Shown one piece after another: positions 13,655 to 64,000 of a stretch of 64,000 bases of DNA. Numbering within the stretch: the first letter of the stretch is position 1; every line of letters begins with the position of its first letter. Origin of the DNA: Perkinsus olseni (taxonomy: Eukaryota > Perkinsozoa > Perkinsida > Perkinsidae); NCBI GenBank assembly GCA_013115135.1, contig JABANP010000113.1:62001-126000 (forward strand), given 5' to 3'. Below the pieces are notes generated by a model. That model ran no database searches and was not told where the DNA came from. It was given only the letters and a program-made list of their open reading frames with translations. The position numbers and the translations under genes are program-made.

Positions 13655-13999
13655 GGCAAACGCGCCGCGTTTTGCTTCCTTGTTGACAACAAGTTGTTGT
13701 TTCTTTCTCTCGAGAGGTAGATTGGAGGATCGAACGTTCTATCTCCCACATGATGTGACTCAACCTCTACGTAGACTAGGGTTTCGGACAGCTCCCATGT
13801 TTGTTTGCCGCGCCTACAATAATCTAACTTCTTGTGTCCAAGTCGTCGCGTTCGTCATGTCTCCCCATCCTATCGCATACAAGCGTGAGTCTTTGCTCCA
13901 CTGGTCTAACGCAAATACCTTTCATACAGTAACACCGCACAGCTTATCGAACATGTGCCCATAAACAGTAGGTGCTGGTCAAAAGGAGTGAACAAAAAC

Positions 14000-20793: not shown

Positions 20794-21021
20794 ACTCTGT
20801 GCTGGACCTCTTCCGAACAGCCGGGCTAAGACGAGTATCTACGCTAATTCAGTGACGGGAGGCTTTCTAGTTGGTGAGAAGCGACCTACTGCTGGTCGAT
20901 GGTGGACTGCTACAGCCGAGGGGGACAGCCGGGAAAGCATTATAGGTAGAACCAGCGATGCTGAGTCCCGCCAAGTGCTCCTTTCTCCGCTTGTGGCTAG
21001 CTCACATATCCTCTTCTTACA

Positions 21022-31840: not shown

Positions 31841-33105
31841 CCAAACTCTCTGCCACAATTCAGAGTGCAAAATGCCGCTGAGGACTACACTACGATGAAC
31901 GGTGGATTTGGCAAGAATTCGCGAACCATCAACTTCATGACGACCGAGCATACGATCGACCGACTAGGACCTCATCGCCGCTAGGACACCGCTACGCTTC
32001 CCTACTACCATCAACCACTTTCTTGGTAATGTGGAACTTCATGGAGCTAGGCAGTCCTCCGAGGCCCGTCACATTGCCGACTGTAGAGACTACACTCTTA
32101 TAGAGGGCATTCAACATTTAGGACAACCTTACTAAGCAACAGCGACGGGAAAGTTCTATGAAACCCAGGCATCTGAATGCCTCATTGTGGACCCTCCACC
32201 CCGCACGATCTGCGTTGAGGAGGAGCCTCCCCGGGTCGAGAGATCCACGAGCAGCGATTCATGGAGCATGGGCTTGCAAGGAGCCACCGCAACTGAACGT
32301 CTCGATCCGGTGGTCAGTTCAATCCTCCCCACTATAATACCAATGGTCTCGGTGACGTGTTGTGATACCGTGGTCACTGCGGTACTGCTACAGGTGAGAT
32401 GGTCCCGTGAGACTTTTCTCCGGAATATTGAATTCCAACCATTCCGCGTACCACTTTTCTAGGCTTTTCATGGCTTTTCTAGGCTTTTCTAGGCTCGTGG
32501 CACTGAGCTAGAAATTCTAGCTCAGTGCCACGAGCACGACGTCGGTAGCAATCCGCGACTAGCAAACCGTTATGAACTACGTCATTTCCTTTACCTCCGC
32601 TGACTTCATTGTGAAACCAAGCCTCGTGGTACCAGAGCCTCTGGTCCAGAGGACAGCCCTCACAGGAACACCCCCTTCTTCGAGAGCGCACACGGATTTT
32701 GGGAGTGATTCTCAAAGCTAACCACAACCTTCCTATTTCTGACGGGCTGCCCCGCAGGCATGAGTCATGTCACATTACGATGAGCGAAGGGACCCCTCAG
32801 GAGTAGCATCTTTGGTAGGGCCGATTACTCGCAGTCAGCGAACGTTTGGACGTGCTAGAGGTCTGCCAGCGCAACAATGCCCCGAATGCTAAGCTCACTC
32901 AGTATAATAGCTCCAGGAGCCCACTGCCTCCTCCCGCACACAAATCCGCCGCGAAATCCCTGAACGCTAGTGTACACTGTGGACGCAACATGCCAAGCGA
33001 AAACCAAATGCTGCAAGTTATTGATAATAGTTGTAGGTGATCACTTGTTGCCGAGTCGAGTCCAGATCTGCGACAGGGAGAAAAGGGTACCACAAACCAC
33101 AAAAC
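31841..33105. other. intergenic, only weak frames
   Basis: Frames at 32187-32462 (+) and 32479-32727 (-) lack motifs. Contains three near-copies of TAGGCTTTTC at 32459-32492 next to the 43-bp palindrome at 32493-32535. Confidence 0.35.
32493..32535. repeat. 43-bp perfect palindrome with single-base centre
   Basis: Arms 32493-32513 and 32515-32535 are perfect 21-bp inverted copies (starting GCTCGTGGCACTGAGC) around one A at 32514. It is preceded by a short direct repeat of TAGGCTTTTC. It is the longest of the single-base-centre palindromes in the window and lies outside the dense tract at 44-58 kb. Confidence 0.95.
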
Positions 33106-39807: not shown

Positions 39808-40793
39808 GGTCGCCAGCTAGCTTCGCTTCGAGCTCTACAACTTTTGCTTTCAACGAGTCGATCTCGTTCGGGGCGGGCGCGGGGTACTAAACGTCATTTC
39901 GTTTCGACAGTCCGTATCAGCACATAATACCGTGAGACCTTCATCCCCTATTAGTGCTTCTCTGGCAAGAGAGTAGATGCCCTCACCATCTCCATCATCA
40001 CTGCTGCTGACCACCTCCAACAAGGCTACAGTTGAAAGTACGCCTGCCACGGAGAGTGTATAGTAAATGCTTTCTCGAGTAGCTCACCAGGGCGTTCTAA
40101 AATCCCAATCGAGAGGCCGCAGCAAACCGATATTCGAACTCAGTATCCATTTTACCAATCGGGAGTGGTCCCGGGATCGATTCCCAGTCTCGTCATCGGT
40201 TTACTAAACGGCTTTTATTGACGAGAAATCCCGATTTCGGGAATACGGAGGGTCCGTGTAGAATGGAGGAGGGTGAGCTTGACTACGAATCATGCATAGG
40301 GTGAGGACCACTACGCCAGTGCCAATCGTACTTGGGATAATGGCCTGGTCTCTGTCGTTCTCCTACCGGATCTTTGCCGCTAGGAGTTACGAAGGAGCAC
40401 ACTCCTCTTGAACGACACGACGAACATTTTGAATGGTCGTGAACACACCCGAGGCTGCTGCCCACTGTGTCCCTTCCCTCACTACCGATTAATGTAATGA
40501 TTGCCGATGATGCTATTATCATGATATGCCGAGTTGACAGAAGGGCCATGGAGTGAAGAAGACCACAACTACGCCCCGCCACCAGCGACAGATTCCAGGG
40601 CGGGCGCGCTGATGATCGCTCCGCCGGCCGAAGATGGGTAGGGGGGCGGAAGAGATGTAGGGCAAGCGCATAGAATGTTGTAGAAGGAGCTACATAATAT
40701 CGAGGGGGGTGTGAGGTCGTCTTTCCGGGGGCAATAGGAATTAAGATATCGGAGTTCAGCTCAGTTTTGTTGTCGAGTGTTGACAGTGCTGTA
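39808..40793. other. divergent intergenic region before the subtilisin gene
   Basis: Upstream of two genes read in opposite directions. A minus-strand frame at 39850-40050 (Asp/Glu-rich) may be a 5' exon of the glycosyltransferase. A B-box-like stretch (GGATCGATTCC) is at about 40172-40182, and an inverted repeat TCCCGA-TT-TCGGGA at about 40228-40242. No promoter element can be named. Confidence 0.35.
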
Positions 40794-44235: not shown

Positions 44236-44754
44236 AGGGTCTTGTCAAGCCGCTTGACTCAAGCGGTGGCTGGTCGAGGTGACACCAGGCGTCACCTCTC
44301 GTCAAGGGCCTCATCGAATCTAACTTGGTCTGGAATGAGGTAGTTTACCCTCCCTGCTCGGCACCGACAGGGCTGGTCCAATAGACACTGAGAACCTGTC
44401 AACTTGTGAATCGGGTGACCTTCCAGTTACCGACATCTCCAGGGTCTCAAAATCCTTAGCAGGTATCGGTCGTTCGGCCAGGGCAAATTACCCTCTCAGC
44501 GTTGTATGAGTCCGCTGGTTGCCCTCCTGTTTTCCGCGATTGATGTATTGAGTTAGTAACTCATGCATGTTGATTATGTTGCACGTAGTACGTGCGGTAC
44601 GTACAGGTCAGCCGCTTCTGTACCCAAATGGTTGAACCCCTATGGTTCTACTGAGTAGGCTTTACTTCGATCGCTCCATGTGACTTGGCAAGGAAACGTG
44701 ACGTCTGAGATCTGCACAGCCTAAAACCAGGACTATTTGATTGACAGCAGCAGC

Positions 44755-44935
44755 TGGCGAAGACCACAGCAGCTAGCGACAGAAGAGTTTTTTGAAAACC
44801 ACCATTGTGTGAAATTGTCTTGACAGCCGGCGCCCTTTGTGCCGAGACTCTCAGCCTGGGGGCCTCTCAGCGAGAGACGCGGAGATTACACTATGTACGG
44901 CACGATGTGTAAGAGAAGGCTTGAGTCGATTGATT
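44755..44935. repeat. dispersed repeat, copy related to 30465-30625
   Basis: Shares ordered blocks with 30465-30625 up to ACTATGTACGGCACGATGTG. Relative to that copy it has about 30 extra bases near 44845-44875 (CTCTCAGCCTGGGGGCCTCT region) that are rich in inverted motifs, in keeping with the surrounding tract. Confidence 0.5.
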
Positions 44936-45292
44936 TGCTCGTAGGAGCCCTTGAGGAAACCCTCTGTTTTGTGTTAACTTCCTGTCAATGCTAACATTGA
45001 GGTTCATTCTGCATGGTAGAGCCTCTACCGAAGAGGGGAAATTCAGTGCTCTGAATTCGAGAGTGGCGTGGCACATGTGGTGATTCGCGGATTGCTGAAT
45101 AATCCCGGCCGAATTTTGGGGCTATCAAACGATCGTTGCAGCTGGCAACTTTCCACCTTGACAAGGTGACCTTGTCTCAGAGACGTGGTAGTTCGATACA
45201 AAGCAGGATTCGAGATGGAAACTCGAGAGTTTAACGTTTTGGAAGCTTAACTTACAGTTGAAGCGCGCCGCATAACGCATGCTCCAACTTGT

Positions 45293-45384
45293 CATCATAC
45301 TATATGCTTACTATGGTAGTAATCATATAGTATGATGTCAAATCGTATTCAAAAGCGTCGCTTTTGAATCGCTTTCAAAGCGAT
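45293..45384. repeat. three adjacent palindromes
   Basis: Arms 45293-45306 and 45324-45337 (14 bp, 17-nt loop); 45347-45357 and 45359-45369 (11 bp, centre T); 45368-45375 and 45377-45384 (8 bp, centre C), the last overlapping the second. Three unrelated stems lie side by side. Confidence 0.9.
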
Positions 45385-45954
45385 AGGGTGAGGGCGCGAC
45401 TAATTCTGTGCAGTTGGTCTGCCATACCACTAATTATACCAATCCGACAATGGCTGGAGTCTTGCTAATACACTTCGACAGCGTAGTGTTACGAGCCGAA
45501 GATGAACTGAAGCGCGCTTTCATTCTGGGTGAGACTCCCCTCTTGCACTTGAGTCATTACATTCCTGAGTCATAAGTTGCAATCCTGTTTTCTAGTGTAC
45601 CCAGAATCGGCACCTAGTCGCGTCGAAAGGACGCTGCTCTTGCACAGGGAAGTGAGCTAAGCTCGCTGACGATATACTGTAGTCGCCTAGGAGGAGGTTC
45701 CGCCTCGCTGTCTTCAGCCCGAGTCTCCGGAGGACGATGGCATGGAGTATGCTGACGGGTCGCGGCCATCATCAATTTCCACGAACCGCAGTACCACTGC
45801 CTCGGACGGCTCGGGGTTAGACATTCAGTATACCGGAAGGGCTTTGCGGGGCGAGGACATCATGAGGTTTGCTAACCGCCTAGTTGACAACAGGTGAGTG
45901 ACTTTCTCACTCAGATAAACCCGGGATTTCCGGGCTCGAAGGCCCGGGAGTGGC

Positions 45955-46015
45955 CCGAAATCCTCAAGACATGATCGGTCCGAAGTTCGAACCGATCATG
46001 TCTTGAGGATTTCGG
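45955..46015. repeat. 25-bp-arm perfect inverted repeat, 11-nt loop
   Basis: Arms 45955-45979 and 45991-46015, beginning CCGAAATCCTCAAGACATGA, are perfect complements. No coding frame or poly-T tract nearby to suggest a terminator. Confidence 0.95.
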
Positions 46016-46197
46016 ACTCCGAACTTTCGAAGGAAGAAGAATTTCAGGGTCCCTTGTGACTTGCTGAGCTCTCTTGGCAGTCACTTCTAGGAGAGTACAA
46101 GTGGGAATGCCGGTTTCGCGCTGTTGATTCCCAGCCATGTTAGCAATAATCTCATAAAGTTTCGGCTTTGTACGTTCGCTCGTCACGGGAAACCAGG

Positions 46198-46236
46198 CCT
46201 TGTCTCGTGACTGATGGCATCAGTCACGAGACAAGG
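46198..46236. repeat. 39-bp perfect palindrome, single-base centre
   Basis: Arms of 19 bp (CCTTGTCTCGTGACTGATG and complement) around G at 46217. The stem can be extended by CCAGG/CCTGG beyond a 2-nt bulge. Confidence 0.95.
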
Positions 46237-47307
46237 TTCCTGGTCTGATGCATCAGCAGCCCTACCACTGGATGATAGCCGCTGTGGTCAGATGTATCAC
46301 TTCCCTTAGTGCAGAGCCGGGGTGTATTCAGGGTATACACGGACTCGGAGAAGAAACAGAAGTAAGATGAATTTTACACTAACCGGTGCGGAATTTTCTG
46401 TCAACATGTCTGTTTTGTCGAAATTCTCGATACAACAGCGAGGCGGATTCCTTCGGAGTCTTCTGACTCGAGAACTTGTTGGTCAGGTCTCTGTCCGACA
46501 GAGTCTGTCGTTTGCGACACTGATAATCCATACCTGAGCACTTCGGTGCGAGCGGCCTGGGCTACTCTCAATCTTGGTGAGCTGGCGTGATACTCTCCTC
46601 AGGAGAGTCTCCTGGCTACCACGATCTGGTAGAGCTTGACTGCTTCTTAGCCGCTCTCTTCTCGAGGCACCAAATTCCCGCTAACGGAGCACGAGAACCT
46701 CGATCATAGGCTGGGGCCGATGGCGGTCATCCACGATGGAAGTCGAAACTCTCCTCATGCCGTGAACATCGTGATGAAAACTTCAATGAATTATGACACT
46801 TGGCTAACTAGTAGTCGCCGCATGTGGCGGTGGCCCGTTAGCAGAAGCGAATGTCGACGCTTACTCCAACTAATCCGCTCTGGCGGAGATGCCTGGGTAT
46901 TTCCGTAAAAGGCTCATAGAGAGGGATTGCATGGCTCGCTAGTCTATATAGATTCTTAGAAAGATGATAGTCATGATACTTCGTGTGCCCGTCTCCTACG
47001 ATTCAACGAGATTGCGTTGACAACACAATACAATGTGCAATGTAGGATTCGCTCGTCGTAAGGCATATCGTACTAATCTGATTAGTCTAATCAGGGTGTA
47101 AATTATAGCCTGTAATCTATTGTACGAATCTGCAGAGGATATAGGGCCTATATTATAGGCTGGACGGTTTGCCCAGAGGATTGACCATACTCGGAGCCTC
47201 TGAGTGACTCAGACTGAGTCGATGCATACTCTAATGCTCAGTCAGCAAGCGTAACGGCGAACAATGATGACTCCGTGTTCCGTATTTGGAACGGTCGGAC
47301 CATTCTT

Positions 47308-47342
47308 GGATGTAGTAAGACCATTATGGTCCTACTACATCC
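47308..47342. repeat. 17-bp-arm palindrome, one mismatch
   Basis: Arms 47308-47324 and 47326-47342 (GGATGTAGTAAGACCAT) around T at 47325 with a single mismatch, suggesting it is older than the perfect ones. Confidence 0.9.
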
Positions 47343-48502
47343 ATGGAGGTGAAGGGTACTACCTCCAATCATACTGAGTCTGTACTTATGATACTGTATT
47401 ACTGGCACGTATCGCGTATGGTAGATTCCATCCACGATCTTTTTCGTCAATGTTCGGATTCGTACACCCACACTCGTCCACGTTATTTTCGTCCAGCTCC
47501 ATTCGTCCACCTCTAGTTGATCCACGATCTTTTCGGTCAGCGCTTTTCTTCCACGCCATTTCATGCATTCTTTTGCTCTTTCGACGATCGTTTCGTCCAG
47601 AACACCTGATCCAGTACTTTTCGTACACTACTAGTACTAGTGTAACACTAGCGATTTATTCCATCCATGTTCGTTTCGTCCAGGGCGACTTTGGAGTCCA
47701 ACGTTTGGACATATCTAACGCCTCATATGTGCAGATTCGCCTGAGCCCCTCAGGCTGAGGGGCTGAGCCGGAGGCCAACCCTCCCTTGCCCGACCCGTTT
47801 CGAACCTCAGAATCGAGCCGGAGGCTTTGATCTACCTGGTACTACCAGGTAGATGAAAGACTACCAGGCTGGTTACCAGCCGCTGGTAGTCTACCAGTGG
47901 TAGATCCTACCAACTTATATGCTTCTATCGCTCAAAGCGTGTTCGTGGTTTTCCTCTGTAGTCTCCTATTCAGCCCTCTGACATGGCTTTTGTAGTTGTT
48001 CAACACAGTTAGTTCAATTACCAATATGATGATGAAGCTCATCATGTGACTAAGTGAATGGCGAGAGCCCCTCATCTTTTGTTCAATTTTCTCGGCCTAC
48101 ATGAGGCATCGCGGCGTTCCTCCAAGACTCAAGAGGAGCTACGTGAATCACGTAACGTGATCACCCTACCGAGCTTCGGTAACCGAAGGCCTCTGGCCTT
48201 CCTCCGTGGGAGGACAAAATATGGCCGCCAAATAATGGCGGCCAATAACTGTAAACACTGCATTGGCCCGGCTCTAAGAGCCGGGCCGGGCTCTTTGATC
48301 GCATACTCTTCCCGAGAGTGAATGAGGGGACAACGTCCCCCGAGTCCCTCCATGCGTATCGCCGAGGCAAGGGCGGTGTGAGACTCTCACAGTGAGAGGT
48401 CCTCCTGGGCCGGAGGCCCATTGAGTTGGGTTTCTGAAACTATGACATATCACTGCCAGGCTCAACACTACCCATCTAGGACACAGTGGTCACTATATAC
48501 AT

Positions 48503-48552
48503 AGAATGTACCAGCCAAGAATTGAACTTGGGCACGAACAGCCGATCGGTGC
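48503..48552 (-). other. tRNA-like 3' portion
   Basis: On the minus strand a perfect T arm is present (CCAAG, loop TTCAATT, CTTGG) followed by CTGGT. The D and anticodon arms cannot be folded. Probably a relic. Confidence 0.3.
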
Positions 48553-48609
48553 ATGCGCGCACTCACCAGAGGCACACCTTAAGGAGGGGTTACCTCACCT
48601 TGGATTCTT

Positions 48610-50290
48610 AATGCCTTCATGCTGACCCTGTCCAGCGCCCTTGCTCCTTTCGTGACAATGATCTATGCGGATGACGTTGTAATCCTGTTTCGATATCGGG
48701 ATGTGCACAGCATTCAAGGTCTGGATGATGATATATCTCTTAGAGTCTAAGACTTAGACTGAATGGTTGGTGCTCCTCAGGCGAATGCCGCCTAATAGGC
48801 GAGATAGTATCTCGGAACAAAACCAGGCTGACGTGCTTCCCGCTGAAGAAGCAGCATGGGAGACCGGAGATAGTGGTATGTATCGAGGGTGACCTGATCA
48901 CAGAGGGCTCCGCCAAATGGACGATGCACGATGGGCCTTCAGCTGGATCGCAAGTTCAGATGGGGACCACATGCGGCATCGATAGTGTCAAAAGTTTTGA
49001 CTCAAAAGGCGAAGTCTTCGACTCGAACGGGCCTATCACACTGTCAAGAGACATGTGTGCAGCACCTGCGGCCTTATCCCGCATGTGGCGGTGCGGTTTT
49101 TCGACAACATCGCCCGGGCACATCTTCGACACGGAATGCCTTGCCGGTATACCCACTGGGTACCCCGTCCCACTGGGTACTACCCAGTCAACTTCGCTCG
49201 CTACAGGCCAGAGTCTGGCCGCCAGACTCTTTCGGAGGGCCTAGCGGCGCTAGGCTAGCGCTCGAATGGTCGCGTTCCGACTGCTTTCGTTTGTCGTACT
49301 GGCCCCGAATGCATAGCCTGGGACGACCTGTGCACTGCGCAGTGTGACACTGCCAGTTTCTAAAGCGCAGGGTGCAGCGGCCTGAGTTTTTCGACCGTGC
49401 GCCTTTTTCACGACGAGCTTGTAGAATTCTTGGAGCCTACAGAGTCGAGCGGCCTTCAGAGCCCGCGACTAAAGCCTCTCCTATTGGCTCAATAACGCAG
49501 TCTTCCAGGGAATGCCCAACGGATGCAGCGGTACCGTACTCCGACGGTTTCGTGGATTCGGGTTCCTATGCGGGCTGCGGTGTTGCATGGAAGTCAGAGT
49601 CTGGGTCATGGTCGACGAGGGATGCCCATGAGCTCGGCCTGGAGTTCAGGCTGAACCCATGGGCATCCTACTCGCTCAGCGTCGCTGAGTCAGCGAGTCT
49701 CGCTGCAGAACTTAACGCATACGCTCATGCGACCCGCTGCCCTGATCTATACAGACTGCCTCCGTGCAATCGACCTGCTAACCAGGGCATCGGAGGATTC
49801 CTCGGAACATGCGGCTGGATGTAAGCTAGCCCAGGGCTAGGAGCCCTCAGAAATCGTCAAGCGTGTGCACTTGCTGGATGCCGGCTTGATATTGCGATGC
49901 ACTCCCTCGAAAGACAGTGTCGGTAATCTAAGAGCTGACACAGCTGCCAGTGACACTGCGGCTCGTGCCGCCGCACAGCATGACCCTGCCTCTACCCTAG
50001 CGGTTCCCTAAGGGAACTTCCCTTCACTCGCTCTGCCCTCTCCCCGGCAGTCAGGGCGTGGCCGCGAGGAGGTAGGACTCCTACAGGAGTCTGTGGGCGA
50101 CTGTCTGTGGGCGCATTGCGCCCGGCGCAACTAGCTGCGCTGCAGTAGCGCCGCTACTCGAAGGCCAAGATCAATCAGGGCTCCCCGGTAATACCGGGCC
50201 GGTATGCCCCTTCTGCGACTCGGGTGCGGAGGAAGACTTGCTTCATTTCTTGTTCGATTGCAGCACTGCAACTGGCTGTTAGATTAGATA
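48610..50290 (+). mobile_element. LINE-type retroelement, 3' half (RT end, RNase H, zinc finger), broken
   Basis: In order: TMIYADDVVILF (RT YADD catalytic box, about 48655), GLQLDRKFRWGPHAASIV (RT thumb-like, about 48937), an RNase H-like domain YSDGFVDSGSYAGCGVAW ... SVAESASLAAELNAYAHA (about 49535-49740), and VCPFCDSGAEEDLLHFLFDC (about 50200-50265), a zinc-finger tail seen at the end of such ORFs. Frames change many times and several changes coincide with palindromes, for example at 48744-48760 and 48789-48813. The 5' half is missing here. Confidence 0.75.
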
Positions 50291-51160
50291 ACTCAACAAG
50301 AGTCGTTTACAGTGGTTCTTGAATTATAACTACAGTAATAACAGTAATACGTAAGCTAGGCTAGCAAGGAAGACAGTCACAAGGGGGTGAGACACTCAAT
50401 TGTGTACAACTTTCCTCGCACTGGCGTCAGCAGCAGAAAACCCTCGAGGCCGCGGTGAGACTCAGAGATGTAATGTGTCTTCCTCCATGCGGAGACTACT
50501 TCGGGACAAGGGCTTGGCTCCTGAGCCGGAGAGATTCATCAATGGCACCGGTCGACTGAGAACTTGCTGATATGTTGCGCACCCGAGCCGTTCGGGCCGA
50601 GCGGTGCATCCGAAGCTTTCCGCATCTACCGGAGACGGTTGAGGTGGCAATAGGGCTCAATGGGCCGTGTCGCGTCCTAAGACTTCGAAGAAGAAGTGGT
50701 AGGTGTGTTTTGGGCCGTATAAAATGGTCCAGTGATATTGATGATTTGCTTAGTGTACCAGGAGACCCGGTCCAAGTTGCTATGACAGTTGCTGTTCCGT
50801 TGTTACTCATAGTCAACTCAAGGCGAGGAGGAGTGTAAAGTCTGTCTACCTTTTCTTCTTCTAAGCTCAGTGAGCTTCACTCTCTCGTGGGCAATATGCA
50901 CGCATGAACAAGACGATTGGCGCATAATGAGTAACATATGACCAAAACCGCTAGTTCTATCCATGAGCGCGAGATTTTCTAGGAAAAACCCATATATGGA
51001 CGGACACGGTCTAGTATCTGTTTTCGTTCTCCCTAATGACGAAAATGTCCAACGCTTCCACTCCCATGGGCCATGGCCACGGACGCACAGTATTGCAGCG
51101 CTCCGGGCTTTGCGGAAATCAGGGACAGCATCCTGAGGGTGTGTAACACCTCCAATATGG

Positions 51161-51213
51161 GTGCCGCCAAGAAGTCTGAGGTTCGCCGCGAAACTCAGAC
51201 TTCTTGGCGGCAC
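51161..51213. repeat. 20-bp-arm perfect inverted repeat, 13-nt loop
   Basis: Arms 51161-51180 and 51194-51213 (GTGCCGCCAAGAAGTCTGAG) flank the start of the LINE ORF1-like frame. Because of it, both strands encode the same short peptide LRLLGGT. Confidence 0.95.
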
Positions 51214-53620
51214 CGTTCGCGATCTGTTGGAAAATCTGCACTATCTATACACTAGCGCCCAGGAGGGTCTAGTCAAGGCTCAATCTAGGCTGATTGGTCT
51301 TCTGGAAGACCATTCTGCGCTCAAGGATGAGCTCTCTAAGAGCAAATCCAACCCGGTCCGCCCCCTTCCGTCTGACGGTCACAGCTTGCCTAATATAAGC
51401 AACAACAACAACAACAACAACAACAACTCGCTCAAGGAGGGAGCAAGAAGGGCCTGAACGCCTTTGTCAGAGTGCGCAGGGGTCTGGAGGGTCTTCTCAG
51501 TGCAGGCATCATGGTTGTCTGGCGTCTCATGAAGCCAGGAATCCGCCACCGCAAGGTCGTGTGCTACCACTGCTGCGCGATTGGCAAATCGGCTCACCTT
51601 GCCAAGGACTGCCCCAATGAGGTCGCCAGCTACAAGTGTGGCCTGAAGGGCCACGAAGATCGCGCGTGCCCTGGAGGCCCTCCACGGTGCGTTAACTGTA
51701 AATGACAGTCTGTAATGGTACCCACCACGCCACCGATCACAGGGTCTGCCCATCCGTCCATAACCTCATTCGACGCTACCTTGGGTCGCTTATTAGGCTG
51801 TATTAGCCAAGGCCAACGAGATTGGTCACTGTAACATTCGAATTAATCAAATATTATTTGACAAATAGATATGGGTAGGAGCACGGTAGTTTTTCAAGAA
51901 GCAGTTGATAGCTTAGATGCCGATATCATAGCCGTACAGGAACCGCCGAAGCTAGCGCAATGCAGAAGGATCCTGGATACGGCCATATAGAGTGGTACGT
52001 AGTCTAGCCGACTCCAGGGACTGGGTGATGATTGACATTCGGAATGTCACATTCCTTGCAAGGGCATTCGCTATTCAACCATCCGCCTAAATTCTGGATA
52101 TTGTCCCTCGGATGGCCGCATCACTATGGAGCAGTGCCTTGTCGATCTGTCAGACTTCATCGATGGCCATCACGTCATCCTCTGCTGTGATAGTAATGCG
52201 TGGGTTCCACGCATTCCACGCCGTGGAATAACTCGTGGGGCACACCTCCAAACGGGGGTCCTATCAGCGCCGTCGAGGAATGGGCTGACGGCCTCAACTT
52301 GCAACTCCTCATTGAGGAGTCCTCAATGACCCAGACTCGTCACCAGCATTTCGAAGTCACCGGGCTGCTAGCGACGGGCCGTCGCCGACGGCTCCGAGTC
52401 TCATACTGAATCAATATTATTGATGTCACGCTGTGTTCTGAGTGGTTATCTCGAGATATTGGTGGGTGGAAGGTTGATTGGTCACACCGCATGTCAATGG
52501 TTTCCGACCACGCCACGATAACGACGGTCCTATCTTCTCGCCTTCAATGCCCCAGTGGGGCATCCCCACTGCGCCTCCTTGGCATGGGCAAGGTTGGTTT
52601 GATGTCATCAAATTGATGAGGTATTGTTCGCAGAGAGAATCTCCTTAGCTCTCAACGACCTGGCTGGAGTCAAGACCTCCAGTGCACTCGAGTGGGATCA
52701 GGTCGTTGCTGTCACGGACAAATTATGCGAGACCTTAGCTCAAACTGTACAGGTATATCGCCGTCCCAAGCGAGGCTCGCTTAGCGAGCGCGCTCGGAGC
52801 GGCCAGTTCGGTGGACTCGTGAGCTGGATCTGCTTCGTGACAGAGTACGCTGGCTCAAGAAAAGATTGCAGAGGACACGAGGATCTCCGTGCGTTCGCGC
52901 TGAACTACGTTCCGCCTCTCGGAACCTCCGGAACTTGAAGCGGAATTGCTGCCGGGAGCATGCTAGAACCACACTTCCACGGATAGAGGATCCACAGCGG
53001 GCCATGGTATTCCATCGGAGCTGGTGTGCTCGCAGCAAGGGCGTCGACCACACTTACCTCGCAGGCTCCCAGGCTGTGAGTCAAAGCAGAAGAGCTCGCG
53101 GACTCCCCCTTTCCTGTGGAGGAAGCTGACCTTCCAGAGAAGGCATCGGCCCGCCTCCAACTCGAAGAGCGCCTCCGGGCACTGAGGAACACCCCTGTGT
53201 CAATATCTCCGGTCGACACTGCTGAAGTTCTGGACGCTCTGCGTGAGATCAGGTCCCAGTCTTGCCCAGGCGTCGATGCAGTTCCCATAACCGCTGTGAA
53301 ACTCGCTGCTGAGCGTGAGCCACTCGTCTTTAAAAGATGATCTTTTGCAGCATTCTGTCCGCCTTCATTCATCATCGCTCGGTACCTCAGAGACTGAAAA
53401 GTGGTCTTGTGGTGACGCTGCCTAAGGGACCCTTAGTAAGGGTGGATGTCGACCTCCGTGGGAACCGAATTTCGGTTACCGAAATCATGGCGGCCAATCT
53501 CTGTCAATACAGCACTCGCCTGTCGGGCGAGATATTCTACAGAGTCTGTAGTACAGAGTCTGTACTACAGACTATCTACAACTCTATATATTCTACCGTG
53601 ACATCATTGACAAATAGCTA
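51214..53620 (+). mobile_element. LINE-type retroelement, 5' half (zinc knuckles, endonuclease, RT start), broken
   Basis: ORF1-like part: a helical segment, an AAC microsatellite (51400-51427) encoding poly-Asn or poly-Gln depending on frame, then CYHCCAIGKSAHLAKDC and a second knuckle KCGLKGHEDRACP (about 51560-51670). Endonuclease part: DADIIAVQEPP (about 51920), ILCCDSNAW (about 52178-52203), SWGTPPNGG (about 52233), IIDVTLCSEW (about 52414) and SDHATI (about 52503). RT start: LDALREIRSQSCPGVDAVP (about 53230), HHRSVPQRLKSGLVVTLPKG (about 53370). Frames shift at palindromes and the element stops near 53620 before the catalytic RT box. Confidence 0.75.
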
Positions 53621-54295
53621 AGTCACCTAGCCTAGGTACTACTGTGGATATTAAATAATTAAAGGATGTGCTGAGCACGCGCTCAGCATGATCGATTTGA
53701 TCGCACCTAATAGACTATCGCTAATAGACTATTACTATTACTATTACTAATAGTCTATGATAGACTGTCTATCAGTATTATTAGGAGACTGACATACTGA
53801 TGCATCAAGTGCGATGTGACAAAGCTCATTGGCAGATATACACCCCTCCACAAATTCTTAGCATATCCGGTTTTTGGGTAAATGTACATTGGCAACGGCC
53901 GTCTATTTTTGGGCTGTGTGTTCGCCAACAGGACGTGCTTTTCAAACGGAGCGTTGCATTTGTATGGCTATGTTCAACAACACTCGACGCGTACAACACC
54001 GTTGGTTTCCCTAGGCGTTGGTTGTTGTTCGGTCGGTTGCTTCTTGGCCCTTTACACATACTCAACGCCCAATTCTTTCTAACACTTGTTGCTTCTTTCG
54101 GGTGTTGCTTCTATTGCTCGACGTTGCTTTTTCTGCCAGTACATTATCAACAGTGGTGTTGCTTGACCACCTTCATCTAGGAACGTTGTGTTTTACGGTA
54201 AAAGTTTTACCCGGTCTTTCCATTTCGGCATTCACTGATAGTTTCTCAGAAGCTGCTTTTAGGAGTTTGGGTGACAGCTTCTGAGACTCAGACGG
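53621..54295. other. noncoding stretch with AT repeats and a dispersed 35-bp repeat
   Basis: ATTACT-type simple repeat at about 53717-53755. TCCACAAATTCTTAGCATAT at about 53847-53866 recurs at about 56320 and, inverted, at about 56583. Inverted repeat TCTCAGAAGCTG at 54244-54255 and 54275-54286 lies just before the AT-hook ORF. Confidence 0.5.
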
Positions 54296-55213
54296 ATGTG
54301 CAAACCATTCCTGCGTCCCTGCTCAACGAACTTAGTTGCCATGCAGCGCCGGGCCTATCATACAAGCCGTCGCAAGCGCTACTCCGAGATTACTGCCAGC
54401 GACGGCGGGAGTACTACTCCCTATGAGCGAGTTCATCCGAAAAGCTTTTTCGAGACCTCACGCCGCGAGGCTCACGGACATTTACTGGCGCTTGTAATAC
54501 CCCAACTCCTCCGAAGTTTCGCACTTGCGGGCCACAAGCGTGGGGCTGTGGCTTGCCACAAGCTGTGGCAAGCATTCAGCTCACGGCCTCAACATGGACC
54601 AGTGAGTGGTGAGTCACCACTGGTGACCACGACTCCTGCAAACATATACAGTGTATATGGTATATTGTATATGTATAGAGTGTATGTGTATATTATACAC
54701 ATGGTGAAAGGTTTTCTCCATAAATGCACTCTGTCGGGAGGCGTATCTCGCTCGGAAAGTAGCAAGGAGTCTGACGTAGCCGAATGTGAGGAAGAAACCA
54801 GCAACGCTTCGGGAGTAGGTGGAGATTCCAGCAGCTGGAATTTAGCTACAACCTGCTGCCAACTTGATGTCTCCGTTCAGGCTCATGGCGTCGAGGATGT
54901 CGGTCATGAAGGTGGGACCGAGGCGGGCAACCTTGACGGTGCCGAGTACCCTCAACGAAGCCGCTTACTTGATCCTCCAAGAGCAGATGGCGAGGCGCTG
55001 AAAACTGAGATCTCAGATGGCCGCAAGCGAAAGCGTGGGAGGCCGGGAAAGTGGGGGCCAGCTCTGAAGAAGCAGTATACTGCCACTAAGGGTCTTCCAT
55101 CACGAGGATCCTCTACGACTACACCATCGACCCCACTGGAACCCTCGTCGTCATCCTCACCGCCTTCCATTGACGATTACGATTTGCCGCCTGGAGTGGA
55201 TGCGCATTTGTGA
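54296..55213 (+). CDS. AT-hook-containing ORF, 305 aa, unknown
   Basis: The longest uninterrupted frame in the palindrome tract, with an ATG start and TGA stop. The C-terminal part has a DNA-binding AT-hook-like motif (RKRKRGRPGKW, about 55020-55050) followed by a Ser/Thr/Pro-rich stretch and an acidic end. The middle contains in-frame palindromes (54551-54573 and 54605-54621) and an AT-rich, Tyr-rich segment (about 54640-54700). Not otherwise recognised. It could be a domesticated or recent ORF, or chance. Confidence 0.4.
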   Translation: MCKPFLRPCSTNLVAMQRRAYHTSRRKRYSEITASDGGSTTPYERVHPKSFFETSRREAHGHLLALVIPQLLRSFALAGHKRGAVACHKLWQAFSSRPQHGPVSGESPLVTTTPANIYSVYGILYMYRVYVYIIHMVKGFLHKCTLSGGVSRSESSKESDVAECEEETSNASGVGGDSSSWNLATTCCQLDVSVQAHGVEDVGHEGGTEAGNLDGAEYPQRSRLLDPPRADGEALKTEISDGRKRKRGRPGKWGPALKKQYTATKGLPSRGSSTTTPSTPLEPSSSSSPPSIDDYDLPPGVDAHL

Positions 55214-55744
55214 TGAATGGTGAGGGTTTTCAAGCGGTATCAACTACATATTTACTCTTCAGGTTTAATTGAAATTTTCTTATGATCTCGCTCAAACTTC
55301 GTCTACTCCTGCGGTCTTTCACGGTGTCTCCCAGAGCCCGGAAACTACAAGTGCGTCGCTGTAGTAGTATTTCGTTACGGAGTAGGCGTATGCTTCTCAG
55401 GTTGAACTGCACTGATAATCCGTTACGCCGTGATATGAAGAAGTTCTACAGTAGAACTAGCAGTTCTGAATCTATTTCTCCACAGCTTAGCTTTGTTGCG
55501 TACTTCACAGTAGACTCTACTCCTACCAGATAAATTGGCTGTGCGACTCGCTACTAGACAGTCTAGTCTAGACTAGTGGCAGTATCACTGTGATACCAGT
55601 TAGAGATGAGATGCAGATAGTTAGGAAGACAGTGTCTTCAAGACAGTGCTTGATGTTGGACCAACATTGTTCTGCTAGTCGGAAAAACCTACGAGATAGT
55701 TCGAACTCATCACACCGCAAGTGCTCGTTAACAGTAAGCTGCAA

Positions 55745-56160
55745 AAAGTGAAGGTGTTGCAAAAGTAGAGGTGTTGGCAAAGTACGTGTGTTGCCAAAGC
55801 ACAGAAGTTGATAAAGTCCCCGATGTTGCCCAAATTCCAACGTCTACAAAACTCATATGTTATGTAAGTTCGTCAAGTCCGCTTGTTGCATGTGTTAACG
55901 AGTTTGCTATGCAAATGTGTTTGATTCGTCGCCCTGTTGTCAAAGTACCTATGTGATAATTTGACCCTAGTGAAAATCAACCACTGTTGCAAAAGCTAAT
56001 GCACGCGTTGATGAAGTTCATGGGCCAGTTGAAAAAGAATGCCACGTTGTAGAACAACGCGTTGCTAAATGTCACGTTGCCGAAGTAAATATTCCCGTTG
56101 CGAATGTCGTTGCTGCCGTTGCCATTTCACCGGAGTTGTTATTGTTGGTGTTGTCGAAGT
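55745..56160. repeat. degenerate minisatellite, unit about 17 bp
   Basis: Successive units vary around GTGTTGCCAAAGTACAG; the clearest five lie at about 55752-55840. Later units become irregular but keep GTTG...AAA spacing. Confidence 0.6.
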
Positions 56161-56170
56161 TCACTCACCC

Positions 56171-56581
56171 CCGGTTTTTCGACTCGTGCACTGTCACCTG
56201 GGCGAGTACGGAACTGCAATTCAAGGAGGTTTATTCTTATGCTTCCCAGGATATAACCTCCAAGTTTCAGGGCCTAACTCTTCATAGTTAGTGAGAACTC
56301 GAAAAGTCGTGAAAAATTTTCTCCACAAATTCTTAGCATACACGGCTTAAAAACTGCGCCTGAAAATACCAACTTTTACTCGGCAACTATGTCTACAACT
56401 TTGCATCTGATCTAATGCGGTACACCAGTGGAGAGAGCGTCTTTCAAAAAGCTATCACCCCATGTTTCGTCTCAATAGACCCTGAAACTTGGAGGTTATA
56501 TCCTGGGAAGCATAAGAATAAACCTCCTTGAGTTGCAGTTCCGTACTCGTCCAGGTGACAGTGCACGAGTCGAAAAACTGG
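56171..56581. repeat. 102-bp inverted repeat with about 207-nt spacer
   Basis: Arms 56171-56272 and 56480-56581 are near-perfect inverted copies (CAAGGAGGTTTATTCTTATG within). The spacer and the right flank each hold a copy of CCACAAATTCTTAGCATA. No terminal duplication or transposase is visible. It could be a foldback element or a large inverted duplication. Confidence 0.85.
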
Positions 56582-56685
56582 ATATGCTAAGAATTTGTGG
56601 AGGGGTGTATAACTGCTCTCAACTGTGAGGCTGAACAGAGTCACTCTGAGATGTGACAGTCGTAGTGTCGTGGCTTGGATAACTC

Positions 56686-56730
56686 GCCACCAGGAACGCC
56701 ATTGGAGCCTCCAATGGCGTTCCTGGTGGC
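56686..56730. repeat. 21-bp-arm perfect palindrome, 3-nt centre
   Basis: Arms 56686-56706 and 56710-56730 (GCCACCAGGAACGCCATTGG...) around GCC. Followed directly by GTGAACCGTGACTGAGACCG with a further short repeat of GTGAACCG. Confidence 0.95.
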
Positions 56731-57159
56731 GTGAACCGTGACTGAGACCGTGAACCGCCCTCCAATTTGGAGTTCGGGTCACATTGCACACGATTCCTGT
56801 GACAAGGGAAGGAAGGCTGCACCGTGCAGCCTGCACGGCTAGGTTATGCATATCTGCCAGATCTATTGCCTGTTGCTGATGACGCAATGCCACCTGAAAG
56901 CGGTAGCTCGGCGACACTACGGGATGATCGAGGACCCTAGCAAGGTCACCCTACTGAGCAGAGGAGCAGACGAGAGGCTCCGAGGCTCAGTATGTGCGCG
57001 GCCCAAGTATGAGGAAACGCAACATACGAGATTGACGAGTTCTCTGAAGATTGTGTATGATACACAGTGTATCGCGTTTCTCCATCATGGAGACTCAATT
57101 ATCAGCCCCAATTTATCTGGCAAATTGAGCGATATAACACAATCAACCTTACCAGTAGA

Positions 57160-58604
57160 TCAATCTTCAACGTTACTTTCACACATGGCTTCTAAAGACA
57201 CTCCATAAGGCCGAGAATGACGAACATTCGCACAGGAAGAAAGGATGTTGGTCTCTTCTCCTCCTTTCAAGCCGTGAATGAATGCTCCGGCTTGCTCCTT
57301 CGTCGTGAACCACGTATCAATTCTATTTGAAGTCAGTATATGCGAGTTATACCTATTGCAAGCATTGCGAGACCAGCGAAGTTGCAATCCAGAAATTCTG
57401 GATTGAGGACTAGAATACTACGGTTGTGTAAAAATGATATGCTTCCCGTACTGCGGAGGAGGGAATGTACCTGATGGCTCGACAGTGATGAACTCGCAGA
57501 CTCTGCTGAATAGCAGAGTCACCGCAAGAGAGAAGCTGCCTCCTAAATTAGGAGTCGTAATGCACCGTTACATACAGGCTTCATGTGGTCGATCATCGAT
57601 AAACGCATCTGCCTGGAATCTACTCCAGTCTGGAACTACCGCTACAGGCACCGGTCTATCGAGGTCACCTGAGCGGATACGATATAGATGTTCGCCGAAA
57701 CTGCACTCACCCAAGTGCTTAACGGACCACCGCCGCATTTCACTGATAAAGCGTCTGAACCCGACTAGGGCGTCTCGCTTGGAGAATTCCCATAGCCGAG
57801 TACCCAATACGACCTACAAGGGGGGCCGATACTACGGGATTGCTCACTGCGCAGCCTCAGTCACGCAATCAGCTAGCTCACTTTGACTCCAGGGACATTC
57901 ACTAGGCAGCGAACACCTTGCAAAGCGTCTTCGAAGGCAGGGACGGACTCAAAAAATCTGAGATTATAACTGCCGGCTACGAGGAAAGCTCGTGCTGAAC
58001 TTTCACCCGGGTCTATTGACCAACTTCCGGACACATCTACCATATTCGCGACTAACTCTCTTGTACTGAGGCAATGAACTCGGAGCCTTCCGATGATTCT
58101 CGCCGAGTTACCTGCTCGATATGCCCATTCAAAGATCGACCACGTAGTGGGATGGTCGGTAAGCCGACACCTAAGGAGAGCAAGCCTTCTTGTTGCATCA
58201 CAACAGCACGCGGATCACTGCCAGTGATTCACTGGTAGTATCCTACTATCATCATAGTAGTTGCTACTAACTCAGCTACCGAAATGAAGCACTACTGAGT
58301 CAGTAGTACTACCCTGGCTGGACAGTAGGTAAAGCTAGGTAGAGCTTAAAGCTCCAAGCACTGCTACTTAGTAAAAGTACATCAGGCGCTCCACGCAATA
58401 CCGTGGACAGGCGCTATAGAAACGGCAGGGTGGCCGACTCTGAGTCGGCGCACTATCAAGGTAATCTTTAACAGGACCCGATCTCGAGTTGCGGTTGTGC
58501 TCACCCTCAGCTCTGTATCCCACTGCTCGCCCATAATCCATCAGGACGCGGTTCATGTCTATCAGGAGAACGAAAGAATTAGACGCCGGAGGTATGAATC
58601 CCAT
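57160..58604 (-). CDS. hypothetical multi-exon gene, interrupted by palindromes
   Basis: Right to left, coding-like pieces: MGFIPPASNSFVLLIDMNRV (58604 on), ELVANMVDVSGSWSIDPGES and SYNLRFFESVPAFEDALQG (about 58050-57890), EFSKRDALVGFRRFISEMRR and VAVVPDWSRFQADAFIDD (about 57790-57600), and IDTWFTTKEQAGAFIHGLKGG (about 57330-57260). Composition is protein-like and the pieces lie in order. Palindromes at 57386, 57499, 57540, 58215 and 58291 fall between or in the pieces. Not recognised. May be a decayed gene. Confidence 0.35.
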
Positions 58605-59555: not shown

Positions 59556-59783
59556 ATGGCTTCTCCTCGTAACGACCTTGGTATCGAGAAGAAGGACCTT
59601 ACGGTCATCGAGGAGCAAGCAAGGGCAGATGCGACGGCTACTGGTATGGACGAGAACTCTACCCAGTATCACACCCGCCTGGCCGTGGAACATGCAAGAG
59701 ACTACGATACTGATCTGTTCACTATTGTCCGGAAGGTCCCCGACGCCGACCTTCATTTCTTTTCTGAGTGCTACTGGTGCTAG
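59556..59783 (+). CDS. small ORF of the LTR element, gag-like at most
   Basis: 75 codons beginning MASPRNDLGIEKKDLTVIEE, acidic and helical; no zinc knuckle. The next frames (for example 60214-60540) look coding in part but are not joined. An 8-bp-arm single-base-centre palindrome (59799-59815) lies just after the stop. Confidence 0.4.
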   Translation: MASPRNDLGIEKKDLTVIEEQARADATATGMDENSTQYHTRLAVEHARDYDTDLFTIVRKVPDADLHFFSECYWC

Positions 59784-60810
59784 AAAATTTCTAGTAGAAA
59801 TGCTAGCCTAGCATTCCCTATGTGGTGACTTCTGCCTTCCTGGTTAAGGTTTGGTTCGTCGACTTGCACTATCCGCGCTGTTGGAGACCTTTGTTGCTCG
59901 GCTAACACACCACGTCCCAGCTAAGATGGATGCTGGTTGGCCTCTACTACTCTGTCTGGTCTCGCCGACGCGACCTTAGAAGTGGTTCACCCTGATCCTG
60001 GTTTATCGTCAAATCATCAATGCTGATCGTCTACTCATCACCGTGGTACAACCTGACCGTCTACCGGAAGATGATGGTTCTGTTGCTATATGGTTATGCT
60101 GCTATGTTGACACCTGTAACCGGCTCCGATCTCTTTGGGTTGAAGAGGTAGGAGAGAAGAGAAGAAGGCACTGTCTCGACTGAGAACGTAATTCAGAACG
60201 GCAGGAATTTTTCTTGGGTGTGCACTATACTGCTGATGACCTTTTTCGAGATTCCTTGGATGAAGATGATGACCTTCGGATGACTTTGACTTCGACTATT
60301 TCGACTTGTTATTGGTACGAGTTCCTCCACATGAGCTTACCACTGATGTCCCTGCTGTGGGCTGGGTCTTCTCGACCCTGGCTCGAGATTGTTCTCGACG
60401 GCAACCCCGACTTCTTTTTCTGGGGTTTGACCCCCTGTTCTTTGAGTCTGGAGAGCTCAAGAAAAGGTAAGGTAACCCTGATTACTTATGCTGAATTTCG
60501 CAAGACCTTGGTGAATTCCAACTTCGATCCTAGGCCCTAACTTGGTATTCTACCTCGGATTCACTCTTTCTGTTTCGTTGTTCTTTGTTTTTCTCTTGGA
60601 TATGTTGTCTTACTGACTCTGCAGATATCCTGGATGGTACACTTCTTGTATGGTTTGACTTCCATAGACTGTACCATGTGCATTGCTGGCACTCTGTTTA
60701 CTTAACCCCGTTAGCGTTGATGCTCCGGTGGGAGTACCTTCCGCTTTGGTTCCCGTTCTTTCTGTTTTTCCCTGGTTTGGCTGCCTGGTTGAGGAAACGG
60801 TGTCAAGCTA

Positions 60811-62239: not shown

Positions 62240-63960
62240 TTCGACCATGCCACCGTCCATACTGCAGTCCGTTGGAGCGTTCGAGATGTAATGGAGTTTT
62301 TAAAGGGCCTCAAGTAAGACCTAGGGTAGGGACTCGATCGTTGTTCATCTCCGAGCGCAGGAAGTCGATTCCCGGCACGGCAGTACTACGGACACGGTTC
62401 CTGGACTACTGTGCGGATCCTGGCGAACATACACCCCATCTTACCCAGGCGGAGGCGTTCGCGTAGGGACCACCATCTGGGGGGGCAGCCAATGGAATCA
62501 TTACGGTTGCCGTTCTCGATGTAGATACTGGACGGTATTCTCGAATATCAATCGAGCCGTCTTCCCCTCCTCTTCCGGCAGCAGCAGCAGTGCTTCGGTG
62601 AAAACCTCGGCGTCATTGGGTGATGCTAATGACTGGTGTGATATACGCGTTCTCGGAGTACTACTCTTTCTACAGGTAGTGGAGGTGTAGTCGAGGCTGA
62701 ATCGTTACCATCGCTCGTAAGATATTCGGTGGGAGCAGTTTGCTCATTGCCTTGAATGGTAGGAATGAAACGTGAAATCTTTCCTAGGGGAGGAGATGGC
62801 CTACTGGCCCGTCTGGAGGACCTGGGGTGATCAGGAGCGTGTCGTCGCAGTCCATGCGCGAGAGTGATGCGTTCAGTTTTTGCCAAGCCCCAAGCTACTC
62901 TCTGCGCAAACTGAACTGAACTCCGCTGAATTGATCTTATCCCTGGTGGAATGTCTAGGCTCAGTATTAGATTCGCAGTCGTCTAGCAAACAGAGTGGAC
63001 ACAGACACGGTCGTTCCTCGGTCCTTCGAAGCCTCCCTCAGATCCTACCGTATTCTCGTAACCTTAGACAGGAGTCATTCAGAAGAGGGACAGCAGCAGG
63101 GGAATCCTGGGTCCAGGCCCTCCCGGACGGTAGTACTCGGGGCAGTGAGGATCCTCTACTGGGATGAGCACATAATGGTGACACGCACACGTCACCCTGA
63201 AAGTTTCACGCCCACTCACCGGCCACTGCCCATCGTCGTAATGCGTTATGACCCCGTCTGGTGTCTACTAGGGTGGTCGATCTAGCCGCATGTGCTTCCT
63301 TTCAGCGTCAACGGCCGCCCATTCGCCCCGTTCCCAGTCCCAGGTAGTAGTAATAGCATCAGCATGACCTTCGAGGTCCCCTGTATCGGATTCTCTCAGC
63401 AATCTCCTCGAGCATCGATGGTTATGTCATCGCAGATCAGTGGTGGGCGAATTGGACGGGATAACCAGCAGGCCGTTGGGTTTATAAGGTGATGCTGGGA
63501 AAGGACCTGACCGTCACTGACGGTCCGTCAGCCTCGCCGTAGAAAATAGTCATTTCATGCGAGAATTTTTCGCAGCGTAATCTCAACCCAGTTACTATTC
63601 AATGAATCGGGTTTGGTTCTCAGGACACATTGCGCCAGTCTGTTGCGGATAGTATGCCAATGTTTTGAGGACCCCAGTGGAGCATCATCCCCAACATCGT
63701 CCCCTCCCAAGAAGGAAGTCAAGGTTGATAAGGTCTCATCGGAGGCAATGGACAAGCTGGGGTGCGATCCGAGGTCCTCTCGCTCAGTGCGTCGAGCTGG
63801 TGGCTTCCCTCCTTCAGGATCCTTATTGCTGGTGGCCCATCATTTGGGTCGCCCTGCAAGACCCTTCACGAGGCCGTGTTCGCGCTGAGCGGCGCTTCAT
63901 CACTGCGGAGTCGTATCTCCAGTAGCCCTAGTATTGCCTTTGAGAAACTACAGGTAGGGT
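62240..63960 (+). CDS. gene of unknown function downstream of subtilisin fragment, copy 2
   Basis: Same exons as copy 1: the SAM-like WSVRDVMEFLKGLK (62270-62310), SAELILSLVECLGSVLDSQS (open further than in copy 1), RILVTLDRSHSEEGQQQGN and VRILYWDEHIMVTRTRHP (one frame, 62995-63285), VPCIGFSQQSP (63380-63490), and a final segment with PPKKEVKVDKVSSEAMDKL (63700-63760) unique to this copy. A 4-nt length difference near 62480 breaks the Gly-rich exon. A GTAGGG donor follows at 63952. Confidence 0.4.
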
Positions 63961-64000
63961 AGGGTCGTGCTAACTGATGGCCGTTGTGACGTCCTCGTTA

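What the first reader, a model, noticed from the sequence alone, without database searches (positions are those of the whole stretch)
44250..58450. Dense tract of single-base-centre micro-palindromes
Seen directly: at least 38 perfect palindromes with arms of 7-19 bp around exactly one base in 14 kb, against about one expected by chance (4 to the power -7 per position), and only a handful in the other 50 kb. Arms are all different, so it is not a mobile family or CRISPR. Others nearby have 3-nt, 5-nt or longer centres, and several overlap or nest (45347-45384, 47859-47893, 58215-58236). Inference: each copies its own flank in inverted orientation, as in short template switching during replication or repair. 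A one-base centre is too tight for a simple snap-back hairpin loop, so an inter-strand switch or later trimming is needed.
Basis: partly seen in the sequence, partly recalled or inferred. Interest (0 to 1): 0.92.

Follow-up and report, generated by a model that had tools for sequence, protein, structure and literature searches.

The report
Scars of thousands of departed transposons
The dense mini-palindromes are 22-letter scars, built on one fixed plan, most likely left when cut-and-paste (hAT-type) transposons jumped out of the DNA of the clam parasite Perkinsus; such scars seem to be spread through its genome and record past jumping.

Summary
The palindromes are real and more numerous than reported: 104 one-base-centre palindromes with arms of 7 or more in 44250-58450, about 0.8 expected. 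They are not random template switches. Most are halves of one fixed composite: an 8-bp word T written T(1-7), rc(T), T(2-8), 22 bp. In 303 kb this geometry occurs 123 times; other sizes and offsets give chance-like numbers, small excesses, or by-products. Related copies carry plain T at the same place, so the event is an exact +14-bp insertion: 21 of 24 distinct +14 indels fit with at most 2 mismatches. T favours T at position 2 and A at position 7, the Hermes hAT target nTnnnnAn. A palindrome centred on the complement of the base next to the element is the published mark of hAT excision through flank hairpins. Best reading: hAT excision footprints in Perkinsus olseni, repaired to one product because both opened hairpins carry complementary copies of the target duplication. 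Pattern counts extrapolate to about 20,000 genome-wide. The tract is dense probably because it holds dead LINE copies. No site still holding its element was found. New variant of a known kind.

The parts
44250..58450 (.). tract dense in footprints: 32 of the 38 exact composites of the window start at 44240-58450; 17 more with 1 and 14 with 2 mismatches start in 44200-58500
44244..44265 (.). exact footprint, T=GTCAAGCG
45154..45175 (.). exact footprint, T=CACCTTGT
46489..46510 (.). exact footprint, T=CTCTGTCG
46593..46614 (.). exact footprint, T=CTCTCCTG
47072..47093 (.). exact footprint, T=ACTAATCA
47139..47160 (.). exact footprint, T=ATATAGGC
47199..47220 (.). exact footprint, T=TCTGAGTC
47867..47888 (.). 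exact footprint, T=GGCTGGTA, overlaps the next
47883..47904 (.). exact footprint, T=CTGGTAGA, overlaps the one before
48140..48161 (.). exact footprint, T=TACGTGAT
48377..48398 (.). exact footprint, T=TGTGAGAG
48738..48759 (.). exact footprint, T=TCTTAGAC
49206..49227 (.). exact footprint, T=GGCCAGAC
49240..49261 (.). exact footprint, T=CCTAGCGC
49675..49696 (.). exact footprint, T=CTCAGCGA
50003..50024 (.). exact footprint, T=GTTCCCTT
50109..50130 (.). exact footprint, T=GGGCGCAA
50184..50205 (.). exact footprint, T=CCCGGTAT
52034..52055 (.). exact footprint, T=GACATTCC; C91 copy has plain T
52305..52326 (.). exact footprint, T=CTCCTCAA; C91 copy has plain T
52371..52392 (.). exact footprint, T=GCGACGGC
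52598..52619 (.). exact footprint, T=TTTGATGA; C91 copy has plain T
52768..52789 (.). exact footprint, T=AAGCGAGC; C91 copy has plain T
53422..53443 (.). exact footprint, T=CTAAGGGT; C91 copy has plain T
53463..53484 (.). exact footprint, T=AACCGAAA; C91 copy has 8 bp here, one base different
53551..53572 (.). exact footprint, T=GTACAGAC
53752..53773 (.). exact footprint, T=AGTCTATC
54606..54627 (.). exact footprint, T=GTGGTGAC
55553..55574 (.). exact footprint, T=ACTAGACT
56816..56837 (.). exact footprint, T=GCTGCACG
57052..57073 (.). exact footprint, T=TGTGTATC
58214..58235 (.). exact footprint, T=ATCACTGG
13679..13700 (.). exact footprint outside the tract, T=CTTGTTGT
28647..28668 (.). exact footprint outside the tract, T=GTTCACAG
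28725..28746 (.). exact footprint outside the tract, same T, 78 bp further on
32631..32652 (.). exact footprint outside the tract, T=ACCAGAGG
59780..59801 (.). exact footprint outside the tract, T=CTAGAAAT
63510..63531 (.). exact footprint outside the tract, T=ACCGTCAG
32486..32535 (.). arm-21 one-base palindrome with T(1-7) directly before it: read as a deep one-sided hairpin opening
   Evidence: reading inferred
45347..45383 (.). arm-11 one-base palindrome, T(2-8) 7 bases after its end
   Evidence: reading inferred
46198..46251 (.). arm-19 one-base palindrome, T(2-8) 8 bases after its end
   Evidence: reading inferred
48265..48295 (.). arm-11 one-base palindrome, T(2-8) 1 base after its end
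   Evidence: reading inferred
48050..50561 (+). decayed LINE copy, broken into frames
   Evidence: tblastn with open frames of the C91 copy
51015..53520 (+). second decayed LINE copy; carries 10 +14 insertions absent from its relative on C91

Best explanation
Excision footprints of hAT-type DNA transposons in Perkinsus olseni. An element inserted and duplicated an 8-bp target T (flank-T-element-T-flank). On excision the transposase cut one base inside each flank and joined that end to the opposite strand, capping both flanks with hairpins: T(1-7) joined to rc(T) on the left, the mirror image on the right. When the hairpins were nicked away from their tips, the single-stranded tails were copies of T on opposite strands and so complementary. 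Annealing, filling and ligation give T(1-7)+rc(T)+T(2-8): 22 bp, +14 over the empty site, for any pair of nicks whose tails overlap. Deeper nicking on one side gives the longer one-base palindromes. Shown: the composite, its fixed size and offset, the +14 difference from related copies, the target preference, the spread through the genome, hAT genes, and one hAT element with an 8-bp duplication. Inferred: that an element sat at each site, the hairpin chemistry, the tail annealing, and that the tract is dense because dead LINE copies tolerate +14 frameshifts.
For: Single large outlier at 8 bp, offset 1: 123 hits in 303,381 bases. +14 is the commonest of 75 distinct indels of 4 bp or more (24), 21 of these 24 fit with at most 2 mismatches and 23 with at most 3; of the 51 indels of other lengths 2 fit, both +28. 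T2=T in 45 and T7=A in 41 of 110 (p 1.2e-4 and 0.002), flanks without clear preference; Hermes targets are nTnnnnAn, 8 bp (passages). Ac/Ds footprints are palindromes centred on the complement of the base beside the element (passages). hAT dimerisation domain at 21 places; 581-aa frame with DUF4371 and that domain; 1431-bp element with 12 matching end bases and an exact 8-bp duplication. 14 of 39 longer palindromes carry the predicted third copy of T, 2.06 expected.
Against: No filled site: no insertion flanked by an 8-bp overlap among the colinear pairs examined. Published hAT footprints are varied (28 types among 128 in Candida), these are nearly uniform. Few hAT loci for so many footprints. 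Among TIR-bearing candidates a duplication of 8 is not enriched (3, against 52, 8, 12, 1, 0, 2 for 4, 5, 6, 7, 9, 10). The preference at T2 and T7 is modest; T3=C (48 of 110, p 2.4e-5) is not part of the Hermes pattern and its mirror T6=G (29 of 110) is not raised, unexplained. 25 of 39 longer palindromes lack the third T.
Confidence: 0.8

Rival explanations
1. Transposon-free breaks by a hAT-derived (perhaps domesticated) enzyme: it makes 8-bp staggered cuts, the ends are filled and closed as hairpins, and repair gives the same composite although no element ever sat there.
For: The composite needs only the two flank hairpins. No filled site was seen, recognisable hAT loci are few (21 and 6 places), and the product is nearly uniform.
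Against: The one-base offset is the known mark of cutting beside an inserted element (passage); here it would need 7 of 8 bases filled each time. A hAT element with an 8-bp duplication of the nTnnnnAn type exists.
Confidence: 0.1
2. Footprints of another transposon superfamily with 8-bp duplications (P, Merlin or a MULE-like group).
For: An 8-bp unit alone does not single out hAT (recalled); T3=C is outside the Hermes pattern.
Against: T at 2 and A at 7, the one-base offset, and hAT genes in the genome. P excisions usually leave element ends (recalled). The other superfamilies were not searched for in this genome.
Confidence: 0.05
3. Short template switching in replication or repair.
For: Inverted copies of the flank; the +,-,+ order could arise from two switches.
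Against: One size and one offset: 123 hits at (8,1), 0 at 7 and 9 bp with the same offset, where chance is 0.02 or less; target preference confined to the 8 bp.
Confidence: 0.03
4. Assembly or sequencing artefact.
For: No raw reads could be checked.
Against: Composites decay by point mutation (38, 22, 17, 23 with 0, 1, 2, 3 mismatches), are shared by some related contigs and absent from others, and show an enzyme-like target preference.
Confidence: 0.02

Closest known systems
Ac/Ds excision footprints (hAT) in Candida albicans, budding yeast, Arabidopsis
   Same: Palindromic additions centred on the complement of the base beside the element, explained by flank hairpins, nicking and microhomology joining; arms up to 20 nt in yeast (passages of PMC5873905 and PMC1978519)
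   Different: Those are varied and often have short arms; here one 22-bp product dominates, over very many sites
Ascot-1 excision footprints in Ascobolus immersus (Colot et al. 1998; recalled, not found in the library)
   Same: hAT-like element, mostly small palindromic additions, hairpin model
   Different: Recalled as 48 different products from one site; here nearly one product from many sites
Hermes (hAT) transposition
   Same: 8-bp duplications, nTnnnnAn preference (passages of PMC10368747 and PMC2803484), hairpins on the donor flanks
   Different: The preference here is weaker (41% and 37%), and the element behind each footprint is unknown
P nucleotides of V(D)J recombination (recalled)
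   Same: Hairpin ends opened off-centre leave short palindromes
   Different: The two V(D)J ends share no target duplication, so their tails are not complementary along a fixed 8 bp

Membership tests
hAT excision footprints | Built on an 8-bp target duplication | tested here: met
   Only 8 bp stands out: 123 hits against 0 for 7, 9, 10, 11 and 12 bp at the same offset; related copies have the single 8-bp T
hAT excision footprints | Palindrome centred on the complement of the base next to the element (one-base offset) | tested here: met
   Offset 1 gives 123 hits at 8 bp; offsets 0, 2, 3, 4 give 0, 0, 3, 8 (chance 0, 0.02, 0.29, 4.63); literature passage
hAT excision footprints | Target preference nTnnnnAn | tested here: met
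   T2=T 45 of 110, T7=A 41 of 110, p 1.2e-4 and 0.002; modest in strength
hAT excision footprints | hAT transposase and elements with 8-bp duplications in the genome | tested here: met
   PF05699 at 21 places, PF14291 at 6, one element with an exact 8-bp duplication; none tied to a given footprint
hAT excision footprints | Occupied allele (T-element-T) at the same site | tested here: inconclusive
   None seen in colinear pairs among 38 fetched sequences; other strains not available
hAT excision footprints | Variety of repair products | tested here: inconclusive
   One product dominates; 14 of 39 longer palindromes fit asymmetric products
hAT excision footprints | Hairpin intermediate and its nicking | not testable with these tools
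   Needs a bench assay
Replication template switching | Variable length and offset of the inverted copy | tested here: not met

The most novel reading that the evidence does not exclude
Perkinsus repairs hAT excisions by an almost deterministic route, annealing of the two opened flank hairpins through their complementary copies of the target duplication. Every jump then leaves the same 22-bp mark, so the genome holds a countable and roughly datable log of some 20,000 departures, hundreds of times more than the hAT loci found.
Probability: 0.5. Interest if true: 0.72.

Novelty: new variant of a known kind. Interest (0 to 1): 0.62.

Why it matters
Cut-and-paste transposition is normally counted from the elements still present. 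A uniform scar that names its own 8-bp target and decays by point mutation would let past jumps be counted, ordered in time and mapped without the elements. It would also make the hairpin-opening and joining step of hAT excision, seen in the papers read at single reporter loci, testable at thousands of natural sites. For annotation: these +14-bp scars shift the frame of old coding sequence and can be mistaken for assembly errors or regulatory palindromes.

Tried and rejected
Template switching as main cause: rejected on the size and offset table. A second class at 10 bp, offset 3 (11 hits): each starts one base before an 8-bp composite, exact in 9 and with one mismatch in 2, so a by-product. 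Long insertions in the C91 copy as filled sites: no such sign; they read like sequence missing from the window copy. Colinear-pair scan for insertions with an 8-bp overlap: none; overlaps from -2 to 9, including one of 7 and one of 9. TIR plus 8-bp-duplication scan: 3 candidates, one the hAT element, two sharing an end in L027 and not convincing. PF14372: no match in the genome or in the controls, so uninformative. Pfam on 66 tract frames: 2 families, one member each, E 0.003 and 0.006, taken as chance. Pfam on 74 of the 161 listed frames of 90 aa or more outside the tract: Peptidase_S8, SNAPC3, Epimerase and GDP_Man_Dehyd, one member each. Literature: ten searches; in the listings shown I saw no report of such footprints in Perkinsus, but the library holds open-licence papers only, several listings were capped, and four papers were read as passages only.
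Full report
OBSERVATION. The window holds 136 perfect one-base-centre palindromes with arms of 7 or more, 104 of them inside 44250-58450; a dinucleotide model gives about 0.8 there. Arm lengths peak at 7 (71 in 44200-58500) instead of decaying, and neighbouring centres (arms of 6 or more) lie 7 bp apart in 44 cases, with no other distance under 30 seen more than twice. Random inverted copies would not give this.

WHAT IT IS. Two palindromes 7 bp apart are one composite: with T an 8-bp word, the sequence reads T(1-7), rc(T), T(2-8). The window has 38 exact ones, 32 in the tract, and 22, 17 and 23 with 1, 2 and 3 mismatches; 10 simulated windows average 0.0, 0.0, 0.1 and 2.9 for 0 to 3 mismatches. 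Over 38 sequences (303,381 bases; wholly contained loci were dropped, some partly overlap, for example L041 and L049) a table of word length 5-12 by offset 0-4 has one large outlier, 8 bp with offset 1, with 123 hits, 110 with distinct context. Other cells are near chance or modestly raised (for example 6 bp, offset 1: 3 against 0.29; 6 bp, offset 2: 12 against 4.63; 8 bp, offset 3: 3 against 0.29); the 11 hits at 10 bp, offset 3, are by-products of 8-bp composites.

THE STATE BEFORE. The organism is Perkinsus olseni or a close relative: the subtilase frame at 40767-42191 is 84% identical over 94% of its length to P. olseni FOZ61_010842. The genome held has 61.5 Mb in 968 contigs. Relatives of tract segments lie on other contigs, and aligned copies show plain T where the other has the 22-bp composite. 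Among 75 distinct indels of 4 bp or more (of 92; 17 dropped as repeats of the same context) between copies at least 85% identical outside gaps, the commonest length is 14 (24); 21 of these 24 are composites with at most 2 mismatches, 23 with at most 3, one is not (8 mismatches, L019:5652). Of the 51 of other lengths two fit, both +28. The window's second LINE copy carries 10 such insertions relative to C91. Copies 96-98% identical by BLAST (L021, L022, L023) share one composite, while L022:3289 and L022:3486 are absent from the other two and L021:6340 is absent from L022: events occurred at low divergence.

THE ENZYME'S HAND. In 110 distinct exact composites T2 is T in 45 (p=1.2e-4) and T7 is A in 41 (p=0.002) against a background of 0.246; T3 is C in 48 (p=2.4e-5) while its mirror T6=G is 29, which I cannot explain. 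The ten bases on either side show no clear preference. Hermes, a hAT transposase, prefers 8-bp nTnnnnAn targets (passages of PMC10368747 and PMC2803484). Ac/Ds footprints are palindromes centred on the complement of the base next to the element, explained by flank hairpins, nicking and microhomology joining (passages of PMC5873905 and PMC1978519). The genome has hAT dimerisation domains at 21 places (a lower bound by the tool's own note), DUF4371 at 6, 4 of them over the cut-off, a 581-aa frame with both, and a 1431-bp element whose ends share 12 bases, with duplication GTCCGGAG, itself of the nTnnnnAn type. Its second near-full copy, on C25, has alignable flanks and the same duplication with one mismatch on one side, so it is the same insertion in duplicated DNA.

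MECHANISM. Shown: geometry, +14, target preference. Inferred: insertion, excision with flank hairpins, nicking, joining. A point I did not meet in the passages read: after nicking, the left tail is a stretch of rc(T) and the right tail a stretch of T, so the two sides of a target duplication carry complementary tails. If the nicks together expose at least 9 nt the tails overlap, and annealing plus fill-in yields the same 22 bp whatever the nick positions. That would explain the uniform product. Deeper one-sided nicking predicts longer one-base palindromes with T again near their far edge: 14 of 39 non-standard palindromes with arms of 9 or more have it (6 of 7 matching bases allowed, within a range of 15 positions on either side), against 2.06 with shuffled T; the other 25 do not. 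In the window 22 of 136 palindromes sit at no composite centre even with 3 mismatches.

GENOME-WIDE. Patterns fixing only the inner four bases of T gave 330 (CTGA), 104 (AGTC, the tool's reversed pattern, here a second sample), 212 (CAAG) and 84 (GAAC, reversed) matches, against 37 and 17 for the 10-bp-type spacing of CTGA and its reverse. Of the 42 matches with letters shown (of 330), 35 satisfy all remaining pairings, 2.6 expected. This extrapolates to about 20,000 (19,500 to 23,400), from four cores of 256 that were not drawn at random. In the fetched loci other than the window, which were chosen for matches and not at random, exact composites number 0 to 7 per locus; L017, L029, L031 and L035 have none.

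WHY THIS TRACT. It contains two decayed LINE copies (48050-50561 and 51015-53520), recognised through open frames of the C91 relative carrying RVT_1 (4.7e-25) and Exo_endo_phos_2 (8.4e-16). Dead sequence tolerates +14 frameshifts, genes do not: inference, for no gene annotation was available and insertion bias was not excluded. Counts by mismatch class (38, 22, 17, about 20 after subtracting chance) fit long-running activity better than one recent burst.

AGAINST. No filled site was seen; the uniformity is unlike published hAT excisions; a duplication of 8 is not enriched among TIR-bearing candidates. A transposon-free hAT-type nuclease remains possible. Raw reads and other strains were not available.

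Noticed in passing
window 50276-50421: A stretch of about 145 bp that matches more than 20 other places of the genome, many at 93-97% identity: a young dispersed repeat of unknown kind.
   Followed up: no
L021:4273, L022:4230, L023:1977 and L021:5640, L022:8823, L023:607: Two recurring long one-base palindromes (arms 19-28) shared by three related contigs, perhaps small palindromic elements; mostly without the third T copy.
   Followed up: no
window 42437-44100 and 62983-64000; C33:115000-121765 (L024): The DNA just before the tract recurs near the window end at about 91% identity, and the window end is 99% identical to contig C33: duplicated or allelic blocks around subtilase genes (subtilase frames).
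   Followed up: partly
window 28647-28746: The same footprint stands twice 78 bp apart with similar flanks, so it was probably copied in a short tandem duplication after it formed.
   Followed up: no
L041:1182 and L041:1741 (C129): Two +14 footprints lie inside a hAT element copy, absent from its relatives: elements are themselves hit.
   Followed up: partly
L024:3031: A +28 insertion containing composites, probably two nested events at one place.
   Followed up: partly
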